Shown here: positions 7,282 through 53,145 of the stretch, in pieces
Numbering within the stretch: position 1 is the first letter of the stretch
Layout of the letters: each line of letters begins with the position of its first letter
Assembly: GCA_030674155.1 (NCBI GenBank)
Contig: CM060335.1
Location: 34,278,781 to 34,342,780, forward strand
Origin: Stramonita haemastoma
Taxonomy: Eukaryota > Mollusca > Gastropoda > Neogastropoda > Muricidae
Reading direction: 5' to 3'
Length of the DNA: 64,000 bases
Translations under genes and position numbers: made by a program
The notes under the pieces: model-generated
What the model saw: the letters and a program-made list of their open reading frames with translations, nothing else
Databases searched by the model: none
Told to the model about the DNA's origin: nothing

Positions 7282-8419
7282 GCACTATGGAACAGTGTGG
7301 CTGCTTCCATGGCCAGTTTTGGCAAATGCAGCCAGTGTGACAGAGTTCTGTGTATGTAGCTTTTGGAGTGTTGGTTGACTGGAACGCTTTGATTAAGTAA
7401 GAAAACAGAGTCAGATGCACAGTCAGTGCCGATGATTATGCTATTTGTAAAAAGAAAAAAAAGATCTTATTTCAATGCCTGCTTGCAGAAGTGGCATCGA
7501 TTGTCGTCATTGGTCATGTCTGCTGTGGAGGTAACTTCAGTACCAGTCCACTATGAGGAGCAGACGTAATTTTTCAGTTTGGATGGCATCATGCTTTAGA
7601 CTAAACCTTTGATTTTGACCATCATTGATCACCATAAGTATGAAAAAAAGGGTTTATACAAAAAGCGTTCTGTTGAGCCAGTGGTTTAAAGGCAGTCCAC
7701 GAAGGGTGATGCCGCCGCTGTGGCCTAGTGGTTAGGGCGTTGTACTCGTAATCTAAAGGTTGCGGGTTCGATCCCAGCTATTCCGCTATGGCGTTGTGCC
7801 CTTGGAAAAGGCACTTTACGGCTATTTTCTCACCCCACCCAGGTGTAAAAGGGGTACCAACCTTGTGTTGGGGGTTAACCCTGCGATAGACTGGCGTCCT
7901 ATCCAGGGGGAGTCTATGACTCTCAGTCGCTTAACGCCACAGAAACCGGGATAAGCACCGGCCTGATGAGCCTTATGGCTCGGGACAGACTTTAACTTTT
8001 AACCACGAAGGGTGGAAGTGCTTGCACGGATTGCAGCTAGCTTGCATCCCTTTCAAATAGGAACTTAAAAAAAGAAATTTTCAACTTTTTTGTTTTGGTC
8101 GTAAATAGTGTCACTCCTGGTATTTCTGATTACAGTTGAAGTTTTTGAAGCAAAAGCCATTTAATATCTTTCCATCTGAATGTTTTCATAGCATTATAAG
8201 TGTAAATCATGGGAGAACAAGTCAAAGTCATGGTTCAGTGACTGGGTTACTTCTTTCTTTGTAAAAATACTCGGACAGTATGGCAAAAAAACATTGCAGG
8301 CATAACACTTTTTTCTTCATAGAAATTTATGTGATGTATAGTACAAGGTTATGTGAAAGTGACATGTAGTAACTTTTGTGTTTCAGGTGACGATTAAGTT
8401 ACCCAGCAAGACATCGTAA
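432..8419 (+). CDS. Aldehyde dehydrogenase, ALDH1/ALDH2 class (5' exons outside window)
   Basis: NAD+-dependent oxidation of aldehydes to acids; vertebrate relatives are mitochondrial ALDH2 and cytosolic ALDH1A. Exons read here: 432-558, 1171-1232, 2110-2238, 2564-2677, 2959-3061, 3828-4012, 4614-4779, 5083-5240, 5973-6047, 6707-6746, 8387-8419 (TAA). All introns are GT-AG and phases agree except inside exon 7. Visible hallmarks: [36 protein letters not shown] (cofactor lysine), [17 protein letters not shown] (general-base Glu), [14 protein letters not shown] (catalytic Cys), [16 protein letters not shown] and EYTEVKTV near the C terminus. About 396 residues are in the window against about 500 for the family, so roughly the first 100 residues lie to the left. 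Exon 7 is one base too long: a run of six G at 4703-4708 shifts the frame, and five G gives the expected [16 protein letters not shown]1A versus ALDH2 cannot be decided without the N terminus. Confidence 0.93.
758..1110 (+). repeat. tRNA-derived SINE, family A, full length
   Basis: A-box-like GATAGCCTAGTGGTCAGA (766-783) and B-box GGTTCGAGTCC (811-821) form a pol III promoter. A body follows with GTGTGCGAACGCACGCAGAA and CATCGTGTGCCGGTGGGAAC, then a tail ending in (AATA)n. It lies in an ALDH intron. The body recurs in many copies below. Confidence 0.85.
1740..2125 (+). repeat. Tandem copies of ALDH intron 2 end and exon 3 start
   Basis: A unit with TTTAGGTAGCCGTATTCCAA, a TCGGAGA stretch and GGTTTCAGTGG(A/T)ACTACCCC occurs three times, aligned at 1815, 2021 and 2110. 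The last is the real exon 3 start. The first copy keeps an intact TTTCAG; in the second it is TTTCGG. Confidence 0.85.
2706..2852 (+). repeat. Family B SINE, 3' half
   Basis: Starts within the body at CCTTGTGTTGGGGGTTAACC and runs to the TTTAACTTTTAACTT tail; head absent. In the ALDH intron before exon 5. Confidence 0.8.
3380..3795 (+). repeat. Compound microsatellite before ALDH exon 6
   Basis: (CA)n, (ATAC)n, (TATC)n, (ATCC)n and (TC)n in series. The pyrimidine run ends about 40 bp before the exon 6 acceptor. Confidence 0.97.
4130..4495 (+). repeat. (TGTGTGTACAGG)-type minisatellite
   Basis: Irregular units of 12-18 bp such as GTGTGTATGTGTGTACAG, in the ALDH intron before exon 7. Open frames in it are artefacts. 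Confidence 0.93.
4497..4588 (+). repeat. Family D repeat beside ALDH exon 7
   Basis: Second copy of the pattern at 238-316, ending in CATCTATCTAG just before a (GT)n run and the exon 7 acceptor. Confidence 0.65.
4796..5012 (+). repeat. (GT)n-rich tract
   Basis: Interrupted GT/GGGGTGT repeats right after the ALDH exon 7 donor. Confidence 0.93.
6178..6267 (+). repeat. Three tandem 31-32 bp units
   Basis: CTGTGATCATAATGCTGAAA followed by ATAGACA occurs three times in the ALDH intron after exon 9. Confidence 0.9.
6748..7060 (+). repeat. Minisatellite starting at ALDH exon 10 donor
   Basis: Long units (about 70 bp) and short units (about 45 bp) share ACCTGACATAGACAGTCGTA and CATATCTAGGCTTA. The first unit begins within a few bases of the exon 10 splice donor. 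Confidence 0.92.
7217..7276 (+). repeat. (TA)n microsatellite
   Basis: About 30 TA units in the last ALDH intron. Confidence 0.97.
7714..8002 (+). repeat. tRNA-derived SINE, family B, with target-site duplication
   Basis: Head GCCTAGTGGTTAGGGCG, B-box GGTTCGATCC, body TGTGCCCTTGGAAAAGGCAC, tail ending ACTTTAACTTTTAAC. The 12-bp CCACGAAGGGTG occurs exactly at 7697-7708 and 8003-8014, marking the insertion. It is in the last ALDH intron. Confidence 0.9.

Positions 8420-15746: not shown

Positions 15747-41950
<26,204 letters not shown>

Positions 41951-43302: not shown

Positions 43303-43380
<78 letters not shown>
43303..43380 (+). repeat. (GT)n microsatellite
   Basis: GT run adjoining a reverse SINE. 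Confidence 0.97.
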
Positions 43381-43383
<3 letters not shown>

Positions 43384-43597
43384 ATTTATTTGATTCTTTT
43401 ATATTGAGGATAATGGGATAAACACTCTTGTGCTTTTTTACATCCAGTCCCCGTGTGATGCAGTTTTGTAAATGTCATCTGTTCCCACCGGCACACGATG
43501 GCCTACTCTTACGAAAAGCGGAACAGGATTGGCGTGCATTGGCACACGGGCTTGGTTTATAGTCTCATCCAAAATCCAAAAGACTTTTGGGGAGAGA
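43381..43597 (-). repeat. Family A SINE, truncated at the LINE 3' junction
   Basis: Reverse-orientation tail and body; homology stops at GGGGAGAG where the LINE tail begins. Its remaining head is not found on the far side of the LINE. Confidence 0.75.
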
Positions 43598-43599
43598 GA

Positions 43600-43676
43600 G
43601 AATACGAATACGAATACGAATACGAATACGAATAGTTTATTCAGATTTTAGGCCATAGCCCCTTTCTGAAGGGGGT
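43600..43676 (-). other. LINE 3' end: hairpin, AATAAA and hexamer tail
   Basis: Plus-strand 43659-43674 is a 6-bp stem (CCCCTT/AAGGGG) with a 4-nt loop. It is followed toward the LINE 3' end by AATAAA (plus-strand TTTATT, 43636-43641) and five copies of a hexamer (AATACG on plus) at 43601-43634. A terminal hairpin plus short tandem repeats instead of poly(A) is typical of CR1/L2-like LINEs, where the reverse transcriptase recognises the 3' end. Confidence 0.8.
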
Positions 43677-43761
43677 TATACATAATCATGAACAACAACA
43701 ATCAGAATACATTTCCCAAACATCTACAGTTACTGAAACAAATTAATATGCATTTGTAATA

Positions 43762-46700
43762 TTACGATAAAGCAGTATTTACCCTTTTCAATGCATGGTA
43801 AACATACATGGCAAGATTTGTTAAAGATGCCTCATGTTTTGTCGACAGAAGAACATTTACCCTAAAGTTACAAGGATCATTATAATATTTTGGTCTAATG
43901 AATTGCATTCTAAGATCATGTAAGGCTGGACAGCAAAACAAAAAATGAATTTCGTCTTCTTTTGCGTTATGACATAAGCTACATTTCAATTCATCTTCAG
44001 TTTTACTCAGGTATCTATTGCGGTGACATGCAATATCAGAAACACCAAACCTGAATTTAGTCAGAGCACTTTTGATATATCGATTTATTTTCATGTCGAT
44101 GTACATTTCTTTGGAACAAGATGTTTTGAACAGCCTATATTGAGCAAATCTGTCACTGTTATACACATGTTCATGCCAATCTTGCCATCTGCAATCAATA
44201 AGCCTTTGTTTGAAACTTTTTAAAAAAGCTGGGATACACTGTACTCCTTGATTATCCCATACAAAAGAAAATCCATATGAATTCAAGCACTGCCGAACAC
44301 TCGTAACCCAAGTTTTCTTACCATTCCTATCTAGATTGTTCAACACTATATATGCTTTTAAAGGTATTCTACATTGATCCATACGAGTCAATGTTAACCA
44401 GTATTTAATACATTTTAGGTAAGAGTTAATATATATGGGAAATCTTCCAAGCTCTCCATACACAAGGTCATTGGGGGTTCGGAGGTCAACATTCAAAAAA
44501 CGTTTCATAGCATATAAGTGTACATTTTCAACCACATGGCTTTTTTCAAAAGCCCATATTTCAGCCCCATACAACATTATTGGCTGTACTTGAGTATCAA
44601 ATAATTTACAAAAAAGAGAAAAACTACAGCAGTCCAATTTATACAGTACACGAAAAATGGCAAAAACTGCTTTTTTAGCTCTGCTTACTAGATCTTGACA
44701 TGCAAAGCCAAAACTAAGTCTAGTTGAAAAGTACAGACCAAGATATTTATATGCATTCACTGTTTCTACCTTTACATTACCATACGTCCATTTTTCTTGT
44801 CGTGCTAAATACCCTCCCTTACGAAAAACAACTATATTTGTTTTGCCCATATTCACTTTTAACTTTAACCTAGATGCAGCCATATACAAGTTATCAAGTT
44901 GCCTTTGTAAGCCAGTCACTGTTGTCGATAGTAAAATTATATCATCAGCAAATAACAGTATGAATAATTCAATCAGGTCAAAAGTCACACCATGTTTACC
45001 ATTCTGGATGATGTTCAGGGCTAGTTCATTAATAAACAATGAAAACAATACTGGACTACAAACATCCCCCTGTTTTACTCCATGAGTGCAGTTTAAAACT
45101 TCTGAAAAATGTGCTCCCGATCTTATTCTCGCCTTCACTTCTTGGTACATACTTTTCAAACAACGACATAATTTACCTGTAATTCCATTTTTTAACAAAA
45201 TAGGCCATAACAACTTTCTAGAAACAGAATCGAACGCTTTTTTCAAAATCAACAAATGCTACATATAATTTTCTATTATTCGTGAATTGTTTCTGAATTG
45301 CTGCTAACAAAGTAAACATATGATCCACCGTAGAATAACCTTTCTTAAACCCACCTTGGTATTCTCCAGTAATCTCATTTTGATTTATCCATTCCTGTAA
45401 TCTTCTGTTAATGACAAAGCTATATAGTTTACTACTTATATTACATAATGATATCCCTCTATAATTATTAACATTATTTACATCCCCCTTTTTAAATAAT
45501 GGTAAAATAACAGATTCTTTCCAGCTTTCAGGATAAATACCAGTATCAAATAAATAGTTGAATAACTTCACTAAAAACTGAACTATGTTCCCACAAGAGT
45601 TCTTAAAAAATTCTCCTATAAGACCATCTGGGCCAGCAGATTTATTGTTTTTCAATTTTCTTATAGCTAATAACACTTCATCTTTTGAGATTGGCCTATT
45701 TAACACTTCATCACCTTCCTCTGTTAATTCATCATCCTGTACAATATTTTCTTCATCATCCTTTTCTAATATACTTTTAAAATGTTGAAACCAGTCAGAG
45801 ATAGAAATGTCATTCTGAGGCTGTGACTTCCTATTGCATATTTTACGTACTGCTCCCCAAAATAATTGTTGATCATTTACAGAATTTGAAAGCTCAGTAT
45901 ATAAAGCATCATTGTATTCTTTTTCTTTCTTTTTATTTAGATTTTTATATTCTCGTCTTGCAATACAATATCGAACCCTGTCATCGTTTTGTCGAGTTTT
46001 TCTAAATTTTCTCAATAGCCTCCGCACTTTACGCTTTGCTGTTTTGCACTCATGATCGAACCATCTTCTTCGCTCATTTATTTTTATACCAGGAATTCTT
46101 TTTATCATACATTCAGCTTGTTCTTTGACAATGTCATTAAAGTCATTCAGAGCTCTATTAACATCAACATCTATGAGAGCTTCCGCTCTACACAGACGAC
46201 CCTGCACATCATTTGAATTCATAGAAGTACAAAACAAGTGTTCATATTCTTTTTTCCAACAATACTTCGTTATAGACTGAGTTCTAACTACATTTACATC
46301 ATTTGAACTAGATTTCCACTTGCTTTGTTTTTCAATACACATTAAAAGGGGCAAATGATCCGATTCAATTCTTTCTACCACATGAAGATACGACTTATCC
46401 TTAATAGCCTCAAATAAATTAACAGTTGTCAAAAAATAGTCATTAACACTGTTACCAACATCAGAAATGTATGTGAAACGACCATAATGATCGCCATTAC
46501 ATACTCCATTCAAAATACATAGACCAAAAACAGTACACAGGCTTAATAACTTTTTCCCATATAGATTTAATATCTTATCTTCAGAATTTCTTTGAAAACT
46601 ACTATGATAATCTTGTTTTTGCCAACCGTGAAGTTCATCATCATTCATAATTTCAGGAAAAAATTCTGCAGTCCTGGCATTTAGATCACCACATATCAAT

Positions 46701-47935
46701 AAATCAACATCACTGAAAGAAAGAAACATATCCATGAGACATTGTTCCAAAATATCAATTCCATTGTCGTATCCATACATACAATAATAAGGTGAATTTT
46801 CAGGAGGTATATAAGTACACATAAGAACGACATCTTTGCAAACCCCTAAAAAGTTTTTATCAATCAAAAAAGACAAAGAATAATTACTGTCACATTTCAG
46901 TTCTTGCACAAAACTGACTATAGACTTGCGAACAAGACAAATTATTCCCCCTGAATATCTTCCCTGCCGTGACAATTTTATTGCAGGCTTTACAAATATT
47001 TCAAAATCTTTCAACAAATCTGACTGAAACTTTTCCATAAACGTTTCAACCAGACACACAAAATCAAAAGAAGAAATAAACTGTACAAAATCTGAGTCAG
47101 TCATTTTAGAAAACAAACCACAAATATTCCAATGAAGAAAGGAAATTTTATTTATAACAGCGCTGCGAACTTCAAAGCTCAGGTCAGCAGGATTATCGTT
47201 CCCTGATTCAACATCTCCGTCACTGACATCTCCATCATCACATTCATAACTACGGTCACGTGCAGTGTCATGCGCACGCCCACCTGTACCATCCTCATTC
47301 TCCCTTCCCCCTTCACGTTCATTCTCATTTCCACCACCGCCCTCCCTGTCTCCACTCTCACCCCCGTCCTCATATTCATCCCTTCTCTCCTCACCGCCGT
47401 TACTTTCATCTCTTTTCTCCCTGTCACTGTCACCCTGTTCATTTTCTCCATCCCTCTCGCACTCCTCCCGACTCTCTCCGGCACCACCTTCCTCCCCCTC
47501 ATCTCGGACACCATGACAAACGTCATTCCTCTCACTGTCATGTCCCCCTCCCCCACTCTCTCGGCAATCCTCACTCTCACTCTCACTCTTAGAACCAACT
47601 GATACACTAATCGACTGTGTGCGTACATTACTTTCGTATAAACCATAATGCAAAACATTACTTTCAGCTCTTGTGACCATTTGCTTTTCACTTAATTTAG
47701 TGTAAACTTTAGTTTGGTTACATATCGGATTCCTATTTGTATTTAGTTTGTTTACTGACTTATTCACATACAACTTTTCAACATCACACTCTTCCGTTTG
47801 TTTACTATTTTTCTGCCACAGGTAATGCACAATACCCAAATCATGCACGGATTTTGCATTCTCTACCATTTCAGCATCAAAGCAATTCACACTTTCATCC
47901 ATCCTTTCCCTCCATTTCCCAACACGTGAAACCAT
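43762..47935 (-). CDS. LINE ORF2: endonuclease and reverse transcriptase, one frameshift
   Basis: Two reading frames meet near 45238. The first part (47935-45218, 905 residues) has an N-terminal region of about 118 residues, then a very acidic, low-complexity linker rich in Glu, Asp, Gly, Ser and Arg (about 119-250), then the apurinic-type endonuclease (about 262-535: ISFLHWNICG, VETFMEK, ICGDLNAR, ESDHLPLL), then the start of the reverse transcriptase (about 755 on: NNKSAGPDGLIGEFFK, LPLFKKGDV, NNYRGISL). The second part (45255-43762) continues with KAFDSVSRKLLW, HGVKQGDVCSPVLFSLF, the catalytic LFADDIILL and a distal CSLCHNAKEDEIHFLFCC knuckle. The break is six A (plus-strand T at 45238-45243) where five keep the frame. 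The long charged linker before the endonuclease is unusual. Confidence 0.92.
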
Positions 47936-48031
47936 ACCATCAACATTTTGTGCATGCGGTGACTGTTTTCTTTTTATGCCTTCTGCATTTTCTGGACCGG
48001 ACAGATTCTTGCTGCAGGGCCGGCCAGACCG

Positions 48032-49024
48032 TTATTGCAGAGGACACAGCTGATCCCTGTCATCCAGGCCAAACTTCTGGCCCTCTATGACGAGGTGGTC
48101 GTACACCAGCGATGCCCTTTTGTCCTGGCTTCTGGCAGTCTTCAGGTGCGGCACAAGCTTCCTTCGGATTTCTCTTACTCGAAAAGAGAAATCCTCGCCA
48201 ATGAAGATCCCGCTTCCTTTCAGCTTCTGCTTTGCTTGAAGAATTTTGCCCTTTTCTTTGAAAAAGGTGCAGCAGGCAACGATGGGGGCATTGGGCTTGG
48301 CACTGAGGCGATGCACTCGATCGAAAGAAATGTTCCGAGAGAATTCCAGTTTGTCGGTGAAAGTTTCGTGCACAAGATCCTCACAATCCTGCCAAGTCTC
48401 CTTTTCATTTCTAGGGATTCCATGGATGATGATATTATTTCTTTTGGATCTGCCCTCTAGATCGTCCACTTTCCTCTCCAAAAAATCAGTTCTTTCGTTT
48501 AACTTTTCATTTTCCTTTCGCAGACTTTCATTCTCTGTTTTCAGATCTTTCATCCCCTGCTTGATGCTGTTGACTTCTCCCTCGAGATTAGTACAGACAG
48601 TCTTGATCTCTGCGAGGTCTCGACTCATTCTGTCACAGGTACCCTGCAGAATCCTGATTGCATCCATAAGTTCTGTTGAAGCAGGATCAGGTGACCGTGT
48701 TGGCGTCGTTGCCTCAGGAGTTCTGGATTTGTCAGCGCTGTCCCGACGAGAGCTACTTCCGATTCCAGACAAAGTAGACTGTCGTCCCTCAGTTTTACGG
48801 ATAGGTCCTGGGTTGAGTTCCACATCACCACATTGATATATTAAATCTCCGTAGAAAAGTAGAACGAGGAGCAATCCTAGCATTGCACCGTGTACTCTGT
48901 TTCTCAACCTCAACACGCCAATTCTCATGGCTGCTTTAAATTTTGCTCGTTTTGTCATGAAGGAAATAAATACTGACAGAAACCTGCCACAAAGTGACCG
49001 GAATGCCAGAGCAGAGCAAGGCAT
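48032..49024 (-). CDS. LINE ORF1: nucleic-acid-binding protein with N-terminal 2A-like peptide
   Basis: 330 residues. Residues 1-46 are basic; 47-63 form a hydrophobic stretch (AMLGLLLVLLFYGDLIY), directly followed by CGDVELNPGP at residues 65-74, a full match to the 2A ribosome-skipping consensus. Residues about 80-115 are Ser/Thr-rich. Residues about 117-192 form a long coiled coil (TENESLRKENEKLNERTDF, then FLERKVDDLEGRSKRNN). After it come NNIIIHGIP, typical of the RRM of L1-type ORF1 proteins, and a basic C-terminal domain (FRVREIRRKLVPHLK). If the 2A works, translation yields a peptide of 73 residues and a coiled-coil protein starting at Pro74. The first ATG is used for coordinates; other ATGs at residues 23, 33 and 48 are also upstream of the 2A. 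Confidence 0.92.
   Translation of the reverse strand: MPCSALAFRSLCGRFLSVFISFMTKRAKFKAAMRIGVLRLRNRVHGAMLGLLLVLLFYGDLIYQCGDVELNPGPIRKTEGRQSTLSGIGSSSRRDSADKSRTPEATTPTRSPDPASTELMDAIRILQGTCDRMSRDLAEIKTVCTNLEGEVNSIKQGMKDLKTENESLRKENEKLNERTDFLERKVDDLEGRSKRNNIIIHGIPRNEKETWQDCEDLVHETFTDKLEFSRNISFDRVHRLSAKPNAPIVACCTFFKEKGKILQAKQKLKGSGIFIGEDFSFRVREIRRKLVPHLKTARSQDKRASLVYDHLVIEGQKFGLDDRDQLCPLQ
48803..48829 (-). other. 2A-like ribosome-skipping motif GDVELNPGP
   Basis: Codons 66-74 of LINE ORF1. The motif carries the invariant D-V-E-x-NPG-P residues; skipping would occur between Gly73 and Pro74. 2A sequences at the ORF1 N terminus are known from CR1-type elements of sea urchin, molluscs and lancelet and from trypanosome LINEs. 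The preceding hydrophobic stretch fits the class in which the 2A peptide can also act as a signal sequence. Confidence 0.93.
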
Positions 49025-49150
49025 AGTCCTTCACACAGTCACTGACCAACTTTGGAGTCAGTACTTTCAGTATAGCCAGAGAAAGCAGCATTAAACGGGA
49101 GAGCACGAAAATCGTGTCTGTTCAGTGCTACTGACAACTCGGTCCCCCCG

Positions 49151-49152
<2 letters not shown>

Positions 49153-49189
<37 letters not shown>

Positions 49190-49241: not shown

Positions 49242-49845
49242 CAAAGGAGAAGGAAGGTGACAGGATGGTTAAGATATTCACTTGCCAATATATATAGACC
49301 GTGAGTTTCTGAGTTCGTACCCAGCCTTGCCCTTTCTTCCCAGTTTGAGGAAAAAATCGAAGTGAATGTCAAAGTCATTCGGACGACACTAGAAATCGAG
49401 GCCCCGTGTGCGACCGCACGCAGAACATCTTGCGCACACGTTAAAACTCTGTTCCACCTTTCGGAAGAGCAGGCCATCGTGTGCCGGTAGGAACGGATGA
49501 CAAAATTATGAATTAAACAAAAAACAAAAAAACATGCACACAGGTGTCGTGTTTAGACACCATCCCTGAGGAAAATCGGGGAGTTTGAGTCCCAGGGCGG
49601 TTCAGGGTTGTATATTAAATATGGCAACGTTGTGGTGGTTCCTGCGACGGTACTGGAACCATTCGTATCGGTCATTGCCTTTCATTCAATAGATCATTCC
49701 AGTGGCGTAGAGAGGAAGGGGTGGGGGGGTGGGGGGTGGGTCTGCTGCATGGGTAATAGCTTGCCCTCCATACTTACCCAGGCTTTGCGCTCTAAAGACT
49801 AGAGCGTAACTCCATAGTCTTCTGAGACTGATGGGTGCCTGCTAT
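49242..49845 (+). repeat. Long composite repeat, family F, about 600 bp
   Basis: SINE head AGGTGACAGGATGGTTAAGA and shared body to about 49500. A second unit follows: GTCGTGTTTAGACACCATCC, GGGAGTTTGAGTCCCAGG, CGGTACTGGAACCATTCGTA, GCGCTCTAAAGACTAGAGCG. A reverse copy with the same order lies at 31015-31562, so the two units moved together. Confidence 0.75.
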
Positions 49846-52155: not shown

Positions 52156-52734
52156 ATTAGTATGGGATTGTGCAGTGACATTATCCAAAAGGAATCCTAG
52201 AAAGACGTGAAGTTTTACAAACATGAAATGAAATATTTTTAACCCTTCCACACCTTGGAAAACAGAAAATTGAAACAACTATGACACTGATTTTCTCTTT
52301 GTCAGTTAATCTGGACATGCACAGAGCATTTAGGTGAATCACACCCATCAATAAAGCAATGTTCTGGCTTATTTCCGACCAGTTTGAGGAGAAACTTTCG
52401 CACCCATTCTCAGAGTCATGCAAATCACAAAATACACATTTTAACAATCTCTTCTCATTTATTGACTGTACAGTATTCATCAAATATTGCATCATCAGTG
52501 ACATCAGAAAAAGTTACAACAATCTATGCAAAGTCAAACTTATAAAAGCAAGCTTTAACAAAATAATCAGAACATACAATCAATCAATCACGATGCTTAT
52601 AGCCCAGCTGACCACTGAGGCCATATTGAGGCTGTCACCACAATGATTCATTAAGTTCAGATTCACAGTCAGTCAAACTCACAGTGTACCCAGTACATAT
52701 TAATGTTACAGCTGCAATTTGAATAGTAATCCCA

Positions 52735-53145
52735 GAAGGAAGGTGGCAGGATGGTTAAGACATTTACCTGCCTAACAAGTAAACCATCAGGTACTAGATT
52801 CAATTCCCGGCCTTGCCCTTTCTTTCTAGTTTGATGATAAAATTGAATTGAATGTCAAAGTCCTTCAAATGAGAGTATAAACTGAAGCCCCGAGTAGGAA
52901 TGCACGCAGAATATTTTGCATACACGTTAAAACCCTGTTCCACCTTTAAGAAGAGTAGACCATTTTGTGCCACTAGGAATGAAGGACAAAAAAACAAAAC
53001 AAGCAAACATGCACCAGGTTTTGTGTTATCATCCTTGAAATTGGAATGTGACTACCTAAATGGTTGGGGGGGGGGGGGGGGGAACAGTTGCATATGGATA
53101 AATCTCACCATTGGTAAACTTCAGAGCTCTAGCCCCGGAACAAAG
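52735..53145 (+). repeat. Hybrid SINE: family F head and shared body, family E tail
   Basis: The head AAGGTGGCAGGATGGTTAAG and body match the 49.2-kb copy, but the end (GGAATGTGACTACCTAAATGG read with overlap, then AACTTCAGAGCTCTAGCC) is the family E tail. A G-run at about 53064 interrupts the tail. Confidence 0.7.

What the first reader, a model, noticed from the sequence alone, without database searches (positions are those of the whole stretch)
48795..49024. LINE ORF1 starts with a hydrophobic segment fused to a 2A ribosome-skipping motif
Seen: residues 47-63 hydrophobic, then GDVELNPGP at 66-74 with all invariant residues, ahead of the coiled coil. Known: 2A motifs occur at ORF1 N termini of some CR1-type LINEs, and some 2A peptides double as signal sequences. 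Inference: translation makes two products, and the 73-residue leader may go to the secretory path only when skipping fails. That would be dual targeting in a mobile element.
Basis: partly seen in the sequence, partly recalled or inferred. Interest (0 to 1): 0.8.

Follow-up and report, generated by a model that had tools for sequence, protein, structure and literature searches.

The report
Jumping gene with 2A-released membrane leader
A snail-type jumping gene (LINE) starts its first protein with a conserved 73-residue leader that looks like a small membrane protein and ends in a ribosome-skipping signal, so the element probably makes a separate membrane protein as well as its RNA-binding protein.

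Summary
The window holds a full-length LINE (43602-49149, minus strand, 13-bp target-site duplication). Its ORF1 begins with a hydrophobic segment followed by a canonical StopGo/2A (DVELNPGP); the rest resembles L1 ORF1p. ORF2 is frameshifted, so this copy is broken, but relatives keep the motif: 121 of 134 listed homologues carry NPGP, 11 start downstream of it, 2 have changed it.

Dual targeting by an N-terminal signal/2A is already published for a sea-urchin protein (Roulston 2016) and cannot be tested here. The relatives point elsewhere. The whole 73-residue leader is conserved, more than the linker or the coiled coil. Its membrane-like segment is separable from the 2A: in 11 relatives it lies 14-78 residues upstream of the 2A core, the 2A-proximal part is then less hydrophobic, and a hydrophobic segment remains upstream. 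One relative seems to carry another family's leader.

Best reading: StopGo releases a dedicated small membrane protein alongside ORF1p. In the short leader the segment is still inside the ribosome when skipping happens, so the released leader should insert post-translationally, tail-anchored-like; only unskipped product would be signal-anchored. Skipping, localisation and function are inference.

The parts
43602..49149 (-). full-length LINE, about 5.5 kb, 5' end at 49149
   Evidence: flanked by a 13-bp direct repeat that occurs at no other place on the + strand of the window; the site is a GA microsatellite, so the exact edge may be off by a base or two
49150..49162 (.). target-site duplication, 5' side (GGGGAGAGAGAGA on the + strand)
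43589..43601 (.). target-site duplication, 3' side
49025..49149 (-). 5' UTR, 125 nt
48936..49091 (-). upstream ORF of 51 codons overlapping the leader in another frame
   Evidence: mechanical ORF only, function unknown
48032..49024 (-). ORF1, 330 aa polyprotein
48806..49024 (-). leader, residues 1-73 (released up to NPG)
   Evidence: 41 of 64 MP-starting leaders are exactly 74 residues to the end of NPGP; slower than linker and coil
48947..49003 (-). conserved N-terminal motif, residues 8-26 (FRxxCGxF...FM.KR)
   Evidence: slow sites F8 R9 C12 G13 F15 F22 M23 R26; a loose pattern for it is found in 78 of 82 sequences with long enough leaders, chance rate not computed; one of the 78 is a host fusion gene model where the hit is doubtful
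48836..48889 (-). membrane-like hydrophobic segment, residues 46-63
   Evidence: hydropathy; predicted helix 43-58
48803..48844 (-). StopGo/2A: L-rich hexapeptide (61-66) plus octapeptide DVELNPGP (67-74)
48032..48805 (-). ORF1p proper from Pro74: low-confidence linker, coiled coil, RRM, CTD, stop
   Evidence: L1 ORF1p by profile (2ykp/2yko) and by fold (2yko E 6.5e-10)
45218..47935 (-). ORF2 first part: APE-type endonuclease and start of RT
   Evidence: scores of this part lie below the Pfam gathering cut-offs (best E 5.3e-6)
43762..45255 (-). ORF2 second part: rest of RT and C-terminal region, in another frame (frameshift in RT)
   Evidence: (RVT_1 E 4.1e-18, above cut-off)
43602..43632 (-). 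3' terminal ATTCGT repeat tail (inner edge approximate)
   Evidence: sequence

Best explanation
ORF1 of this LINE is a two-product polyprotein. StopGo at NPG|P releases a conserved 73-residue leader and an L1-type ORF1p beginning with proline. The leader is a small single-pass membrane protein with a positively charged N-terminal side, one membrane segment and a short C-terminal tail. In the short form the membrane segment lies 10-27 residues from the P-site glycine when skipping occurs, so it is released post-translationally and should insert like a tail-anchored protein. The minority that escapes skipping would carry the same segment as a signal anchor in front of ORF1p. The leader probably acts in cis with its mRNA or RNP at a membrane. 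Shown: the motif, its conservation, the separability of hydrophobic segment and 2A, and the L1-like body. Inferred: skipping in the host, membrane insertion, topology and function.
For: Leader residues 1-64 have a mean site rate of 1.10, against 1.81 for the linker and 1.53 for the coil, and 0.78 and 0.86 for RRM and CTD (64 sequences). Mean pairwise identity among 37 non-redundant of those 64 is 0.44 for the leader, 0.29 linker, 0.31 coil, 0.57 RRM, 0.53 CTD. could class 117 of 135 sequences (window included): 103 near (segment within 12 residues of the core octapeptide), 7 mid, 7 far. I dropped P0085 (degenerate leader) and P0132 (host fusion gene model) from mid and treat P0084 as ambiguous (its two candidate windows score 1.53 and 1.47), which leaves 4 mid (14-17 residues away) and 7 far (50-78). 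In these 11 the 22 residues before the core are less hydrophobic than in any near one (best 15-mer: far 0.72-1.34, mid 0.04-0.25, near 1.38-3.05; P0084 1.47), and a hydrophobic segment of 1.90 or more remains upstream. On a body-only tree far needs 4 changes and the three classes 8, with P0084 still in mid; starred branches force 1 for far and 4 for mid. The long leaders P0061 and P0098 are 55% identical, the same as their bodies. P0083 has a leader 54% like P0061's (E 2.6e-49) and a body 71% like P0031's, which has a short leader. AlphaFold2 gives a helix over the segment in both forms. Net charge of residues 1-45 averages +7.4 in 41 leaders of 74 residues, and 24 of those 41 have no charge in 46-66.
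Against: The hydrophobic peak of the window leader is not unusual for its composition (2095 of 10000 shuffles). In 8 of 64 leaders the most hydrophobic 15-mer is the N-terminal one, so a second membrane-touching stretch is possible. An acid interrupts the segment at residue 60 in 10 of 41 leaders, the window's included. pLDDT over the segment is 78-82 in the window model and about 74 in the P0061 model, with pTM 0.43 and 0.39. The tree has few columns and 58 of 125 inner branches are open. P0083 could be an assembly chimaera. No DNA of relatives was obtained, so purifying selection was not tested by dN/dS; host copies were not examined.
Confidence: 0.55

Rival explanations
1. The hydrophobic stretch is only the nascent-chain context that the 2A needs in the exit tunnel; the leader is a disposable peptide.
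For: The L-rich hexapeptide before the core is a known StopGo class, and full activity can need more than 30 residues of native sequence (PMC12846837, sections 10 and 14). The segment lies close to the core in 103 of 117 classed sequences.
Against: In 11 leaders the segment lies 14-78 residues from the core, 50-78 in 7 of them, and the 2A keeps little more than the hexapeptide. Slow sites reach back to residues 8-26.
Confidence: 0.2
2. Dual targeting by leaky skipping is the selected function: unskipped leader-ORF1p goes to the secretory path, skipped ORF1p stays in the cytosol.
For: Reporter precedent for a sea-urchin NLR N-terminal 2A, with recoding qualitatively estimated at about 80% in vitro (PMC4981915, Results part 1 and Discussion read). 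Timing in the short leader fits (PMC2978324, Discussion).
Against: Four StopGo motif classes tested in reticulocyte lysate, the L-rich motif 6 among them, gave about 92.7% to almost 100% (PMC12846837, section 10), so little fusion may form. In long-leader relatives the segment would be exposed before skipping. I see no evident role for an L1-type RNA-binding protein in the ER lumen (judgement). Nothing here measures leakiness.
Confidence: 0.2
3. The leader is a mitochondrial presequence.
For: The window leader has no acidic residue before D60 and ten basic ones. Its helical moment at residues 7-24 is 0.38, above the family's shuffles there (0.22, sd 0.10).
Against: Averaged over 41 leaders of equal length, the moment is not above shuffles in any of the 17 windows tried. 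Acids are common at positions 7 and 45 (20 and 25 of 41).
Confidence: 0.05

Closest known systems
Sea-urchin NLR N-terminal 2A signal sequences (SpNLR2A; Roulston 2016, PMC4981915)
   Same: N-terminal hydrophobic sequence joined to an active 2A; two possible products; partitioning shown with reporters in HeLa and plant cells for one sequence
   Different: There the 2A leader is 26 aa in a host immune gene. Here it is 73 aa (up to 149 in relatives) in a LINE, with its own conserved N-terminal motif and a hydrophobic segment separable from the 2A. That paper says the fate of the released oligopeptide was not investigated.
2A-bearing APE-type LINEs (Odon 2013; Heras 2006 for L1Tc)
   Same: 2A in LINE proteins (from citations)
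   Different: Both papers are not held and known to me only from citations and recall, so whether they describe such leaders could not be checked
L1 ORF1p (type II ORF1: coiled coil, RRM, CTD)
   Same: body matches 2yko/2ykp by profile and by fold
   Different: Pfam gave only coiled-coil families below their cut-offs for ORF1, no L1 ORF1 model; I know of no 2A leader in human L1 ORF1p (recalled)
StopGo class with L-rich hexapeptide (Li 2026 motifs 2 and 6, PMC12846837)
   Same: core fits the expanded motif in 99 of 107 sequences tested; position -5 is L, I, V or M in all 115 tallied and G is at -1 in 109 of 115
   Different: their set is viral; their motifs were defined on the six residues before the core only

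Membership tests
StopGo/2A | (D/G/C/N)(V/I)ExNPGP core | tested here: met
   DVELNPGP; 99 of 107 sequences, window included
StopGo/2A | permissive upstream context (L-rich, ends in (A/S/C)G) | tested here: met
   LIYQCG by eye; L, I, V or M at -5 in 115 of 115, C, A or S at -2 in 108 of 115
StopGo/2A | two products in translation | not testable with these tools
   needs in vitro translation
LINE with type II (L1-like) ORF1 | coiled coil + RRM + CTD | tested here: met
   no L1 ORF1 Pfam model was hit
APE-type LINE | APE endonuclease and RT in ORF2, target-site duplication | tested here: met
   endonuclease hits just below the Pfam gathering cut-offs (E 5.3e-6 and 2.1e-4), RT above it in the second piece
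CR1 clade | RT phylogeny within CR1 | not tested
   no named RT references were available
Dual-targeting 2A signal sequence | hydrophobic N-terminal signal joined to a 2A | tested here: inconclusive
   met by hydropathy only; no signal-peptide predictor was available
Dual-targeting 2A signal sequence | unskipped product enters the secretory path | not testable with these tools
   needs localisation assay
Tail-anchored protein | single membrane segment within about 30 residues of the C terminus (definition recalled) | tested here: inconclusive
   position fits in the short form (46-63 of 73), but that it is a membrane segment and the only one is not shown; position not met by the long leaders
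Tail-anchored protein | post-translational membrane insertion | not testable with these tools
   inferred from exit-tunnel length only

The most novel reading that the evidence does not exclude
A LINE lineage of snails encodes a dedicated small membrane protein as an exchangeable module: StopGo splits it from ORF1p at about 1:1, skipping itself turns a would-be signal anchor into a tail-anchored protein, and families swap leaders at or near the 2A boundary. Retrotransposition of these elements would then have a membrane-bound stage served by the element's own protein.
Probability: 0.35. Interest if true: 0.75.

Novelty: new variant of a known kind. Interest (0 to 1): 0.55.

Why it matters
How LINE particles travel to the nucleus is unsettled, and a membrane-budding complex (ESCRT) has been implicated for L1 (PMC5478143, abstract). 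A LINE with its own conserved membrane protein would make that question directly testable. It would also show a new use of StopGo: deciding, by the timing of release inside the tunnel, which membrane-insertion route a segment takes.

Tried and rejected
Mitochondrial presequence: no family-wide amphipathicity above shuffles, though the window's own leader is above at residues 7-24. Chance motif: rejected. A shared LINE/SINE 3' tail, suspected from an inverted repeat, was dropped: the matching sequence at 43473-43526 lies outside the LINE, beyond its ATTCGT tail and target-site duplication. A leader-only protein search returned nothing, not even the leaders already known, so it has no power and is not evidence of absence. 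A scan of viral contigs found no relative. RT clade assignment was not attempted for want of named references. P0085 and P0132 were dropped from the displacement counts (degenerate leader; fused host gene model) and P0084 set aside as ambiguous, so the script's 14 mid and far rows became 11. Eighteen of 135 sequences could not be classed (13 without NPGP, 5 with too little upstream). Six sequences were not in the body tree because the anchor pattern failed or too little body was left. The conserved M1-P2 in the 64-leader set is circular, as those were chosen by MP.

Paper searches on the novelty question: (listings). Read in part: sections; passages; abstracts and outlines. Nothing in those parts described a conserved membrane leader in a LINE, but two papers likely to matter most on LINE or eukaryotic 2As (Odon 2013, Rao 2025) are not held.

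Full report
What is there. The minus strand of 43602-49149 is a full-length LINE bounded by a 13-bp direct repeat, GGGGAGAGAGAGA on the + strand, found only at 43589 and 49150 on that strand of the window. It has a 125-nt 5' UTR, ORF1 of 330 aa, ORF2 with endonuclease and RT matches and an ATTCGT-repeat tail. ORF1 and ORF2 lie in the same frame, separated by one TAA. ORF2 changes frame inside the RT between 45255 and 45218, so this copy is broken there. The listed homologues that bear an organism name are Nucella, Littorina, Babylonia and Batillaria, all snails (recalled). The host is therefore probably a gastropod; this is inference.

The motif. Residues 67-74 of ORF1 read DVELNPGP, expected 4e-5 times by chance in the window. 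The searches listed 134 distinct homologues (120 of 135, 120 of 210). Of these, 121 hold NPGP, 11 begin downstream of it, and 2 have changed it. Of 107 sequences with at least ten residues upstream (window included, first search only), 99 fit (D/G/C/N)(V/I)ExNPGP. The six residues before the core resemble the L-rich StopGo class of Li 2026 (position counts).

The body. After Pro74 come a linker with low model confidence (residues 66-116 under 50), a coiled coil and an RRM-CTD pair that match human L1 ORF1p by profile (2ykp, E 1.7e-8) and by fold (2yko, E 6.5e-10). Pfam itself gave only coiled-coil families below cut-off for ORF1.

The leader is conserved. Of 64 sequences whose leader starts with MP, 41 have exactly 74 residues to the end of NPGP; the standard deviation is 2.8, against 15 (n=62) for the next interval of ORF1. 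Site rates average 1.10 over residues 1-64, 1.81 in the linker, 1.53 in the coil, 0.78 in the RRM and 0.86 in the CTD; leader against linker, permutation p 1.5e-4. The order holds for pairwise identity in the 37 of 64 sequences left after removing near relatives. Slow sites include F8, R9, C12, G13, F15, F22, M23 and R26, more than 40 residues before the 2A core. Residues 1-45 are positively charged (mean +7.4, n=41), and 24 of 41 have no charged residue in 46-66.

The hydrophobic segment and the 2A come apart. In 103 of 117 classed sequences (window included) the segment ends within 12 residues of the core octapeptide. Of the 14 others, I dropped P0085 and P0132 and set P0084 aside as ambiguous; 4 have the segment 14-17 residues away and 7 have it 50-78 away. 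In these 11 the stretch next to the 2A is less hydrophobic than in any near sequence (0.04-1.34 against 1.38-3.05; P0084 has 1.47), and a hydrophobic segment of at least 1.90 persists upstream. The distance from the N-terminal motif to the segment has a median of 39 over 78 sequences and is 39-53 in the 5 far ones where both were found. The body-only tree needs 4 changes for the far class and 8 in all (P0084 counted as mid), but 58 of 125 inner branches are open and starred branches force only 1 for the far class. P0083 joins a long leader like P0061's to a body like P0031's, which suggests leader exchange, unless it is an assembly error.

Mechanism. At skipping, Gly73 is in the P site. With 30-40 residues in the tunnel, residues 46-63 are still inside. 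A released 73-mer with a membrane segment ten residues from its end would be handled as a tail-anchored protein (recalled biology, inference). In long leaders the segment is 50-78 residues from the core and would emerge first. The common factor in these forms is a small membrane-type protein cut free of ORF1p, and I take that as the function under selection. What it does at the membrane is unknown; tethering the RNP or helping it travel is a guess, made more plausible by the ESCRT requirement of L1 (abstract).

Limits. No signal or membrane predictor beyond hydropathy was available. The window leader's hydrophobic peak is ordinary for its composition. In 8 of 64 leaders the N-terminal stretch is the more hydrophobic one. 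Host copies could not be searched, because the genome tool answered busy 12 times. Two key papers were not readable.

Noticed in passing
49248-49505, 31302-31559, 52734-52991: Long copies of a roughly 260-bp dispersed repeat with a box-B-like GAGTTCG stretch, plus partial matches at ten other places in the window; looks like a SINE family.
   Followed up: partly
43380-43601; similar at 35802-35943, 868-1102, 22118-22272, 34045-34197: The 3' flank of the LINE is itself a dispersed repeat of the window (best copy 95% identical); whether the LINE split one repeat copy was not tested.
   Followed up: partly
43589-43601 and 49150-49162: Insertion lies in a TC/GA microsatellite; one case, so target preference for microsatellites is only a possibility.
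   Followed up: no
48936-49091: A 51-codon upstream ORF overlaps the leader in another frame and could lower ORF1 initiation.
   Followed up: partly
47935-48034: ORF2 is in the frame of ORF1 with a single TAA between them and 32 open codons; by my own arithmetic such a run is open by chance about one time in five.
   Followed up: partly
P0132: A Batillaria gene model (697 aa, PF00102 listed) joins other protein sequence to this ORF1 body at the 2A motif; may be a mis-annotated gene or an exonised LINE.
   Followed up: no
P0024: This homologue has a second DVExNPGP in its linker (alignment), so it may make three products.
   Followed up: no
25329-25401 and 7719-7780: Two tRNA-like matches (Rfam 34.5 and 29.0 bits) that ARAGORN does not call; may be tRNA-derived repeats.
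   Followed up: no
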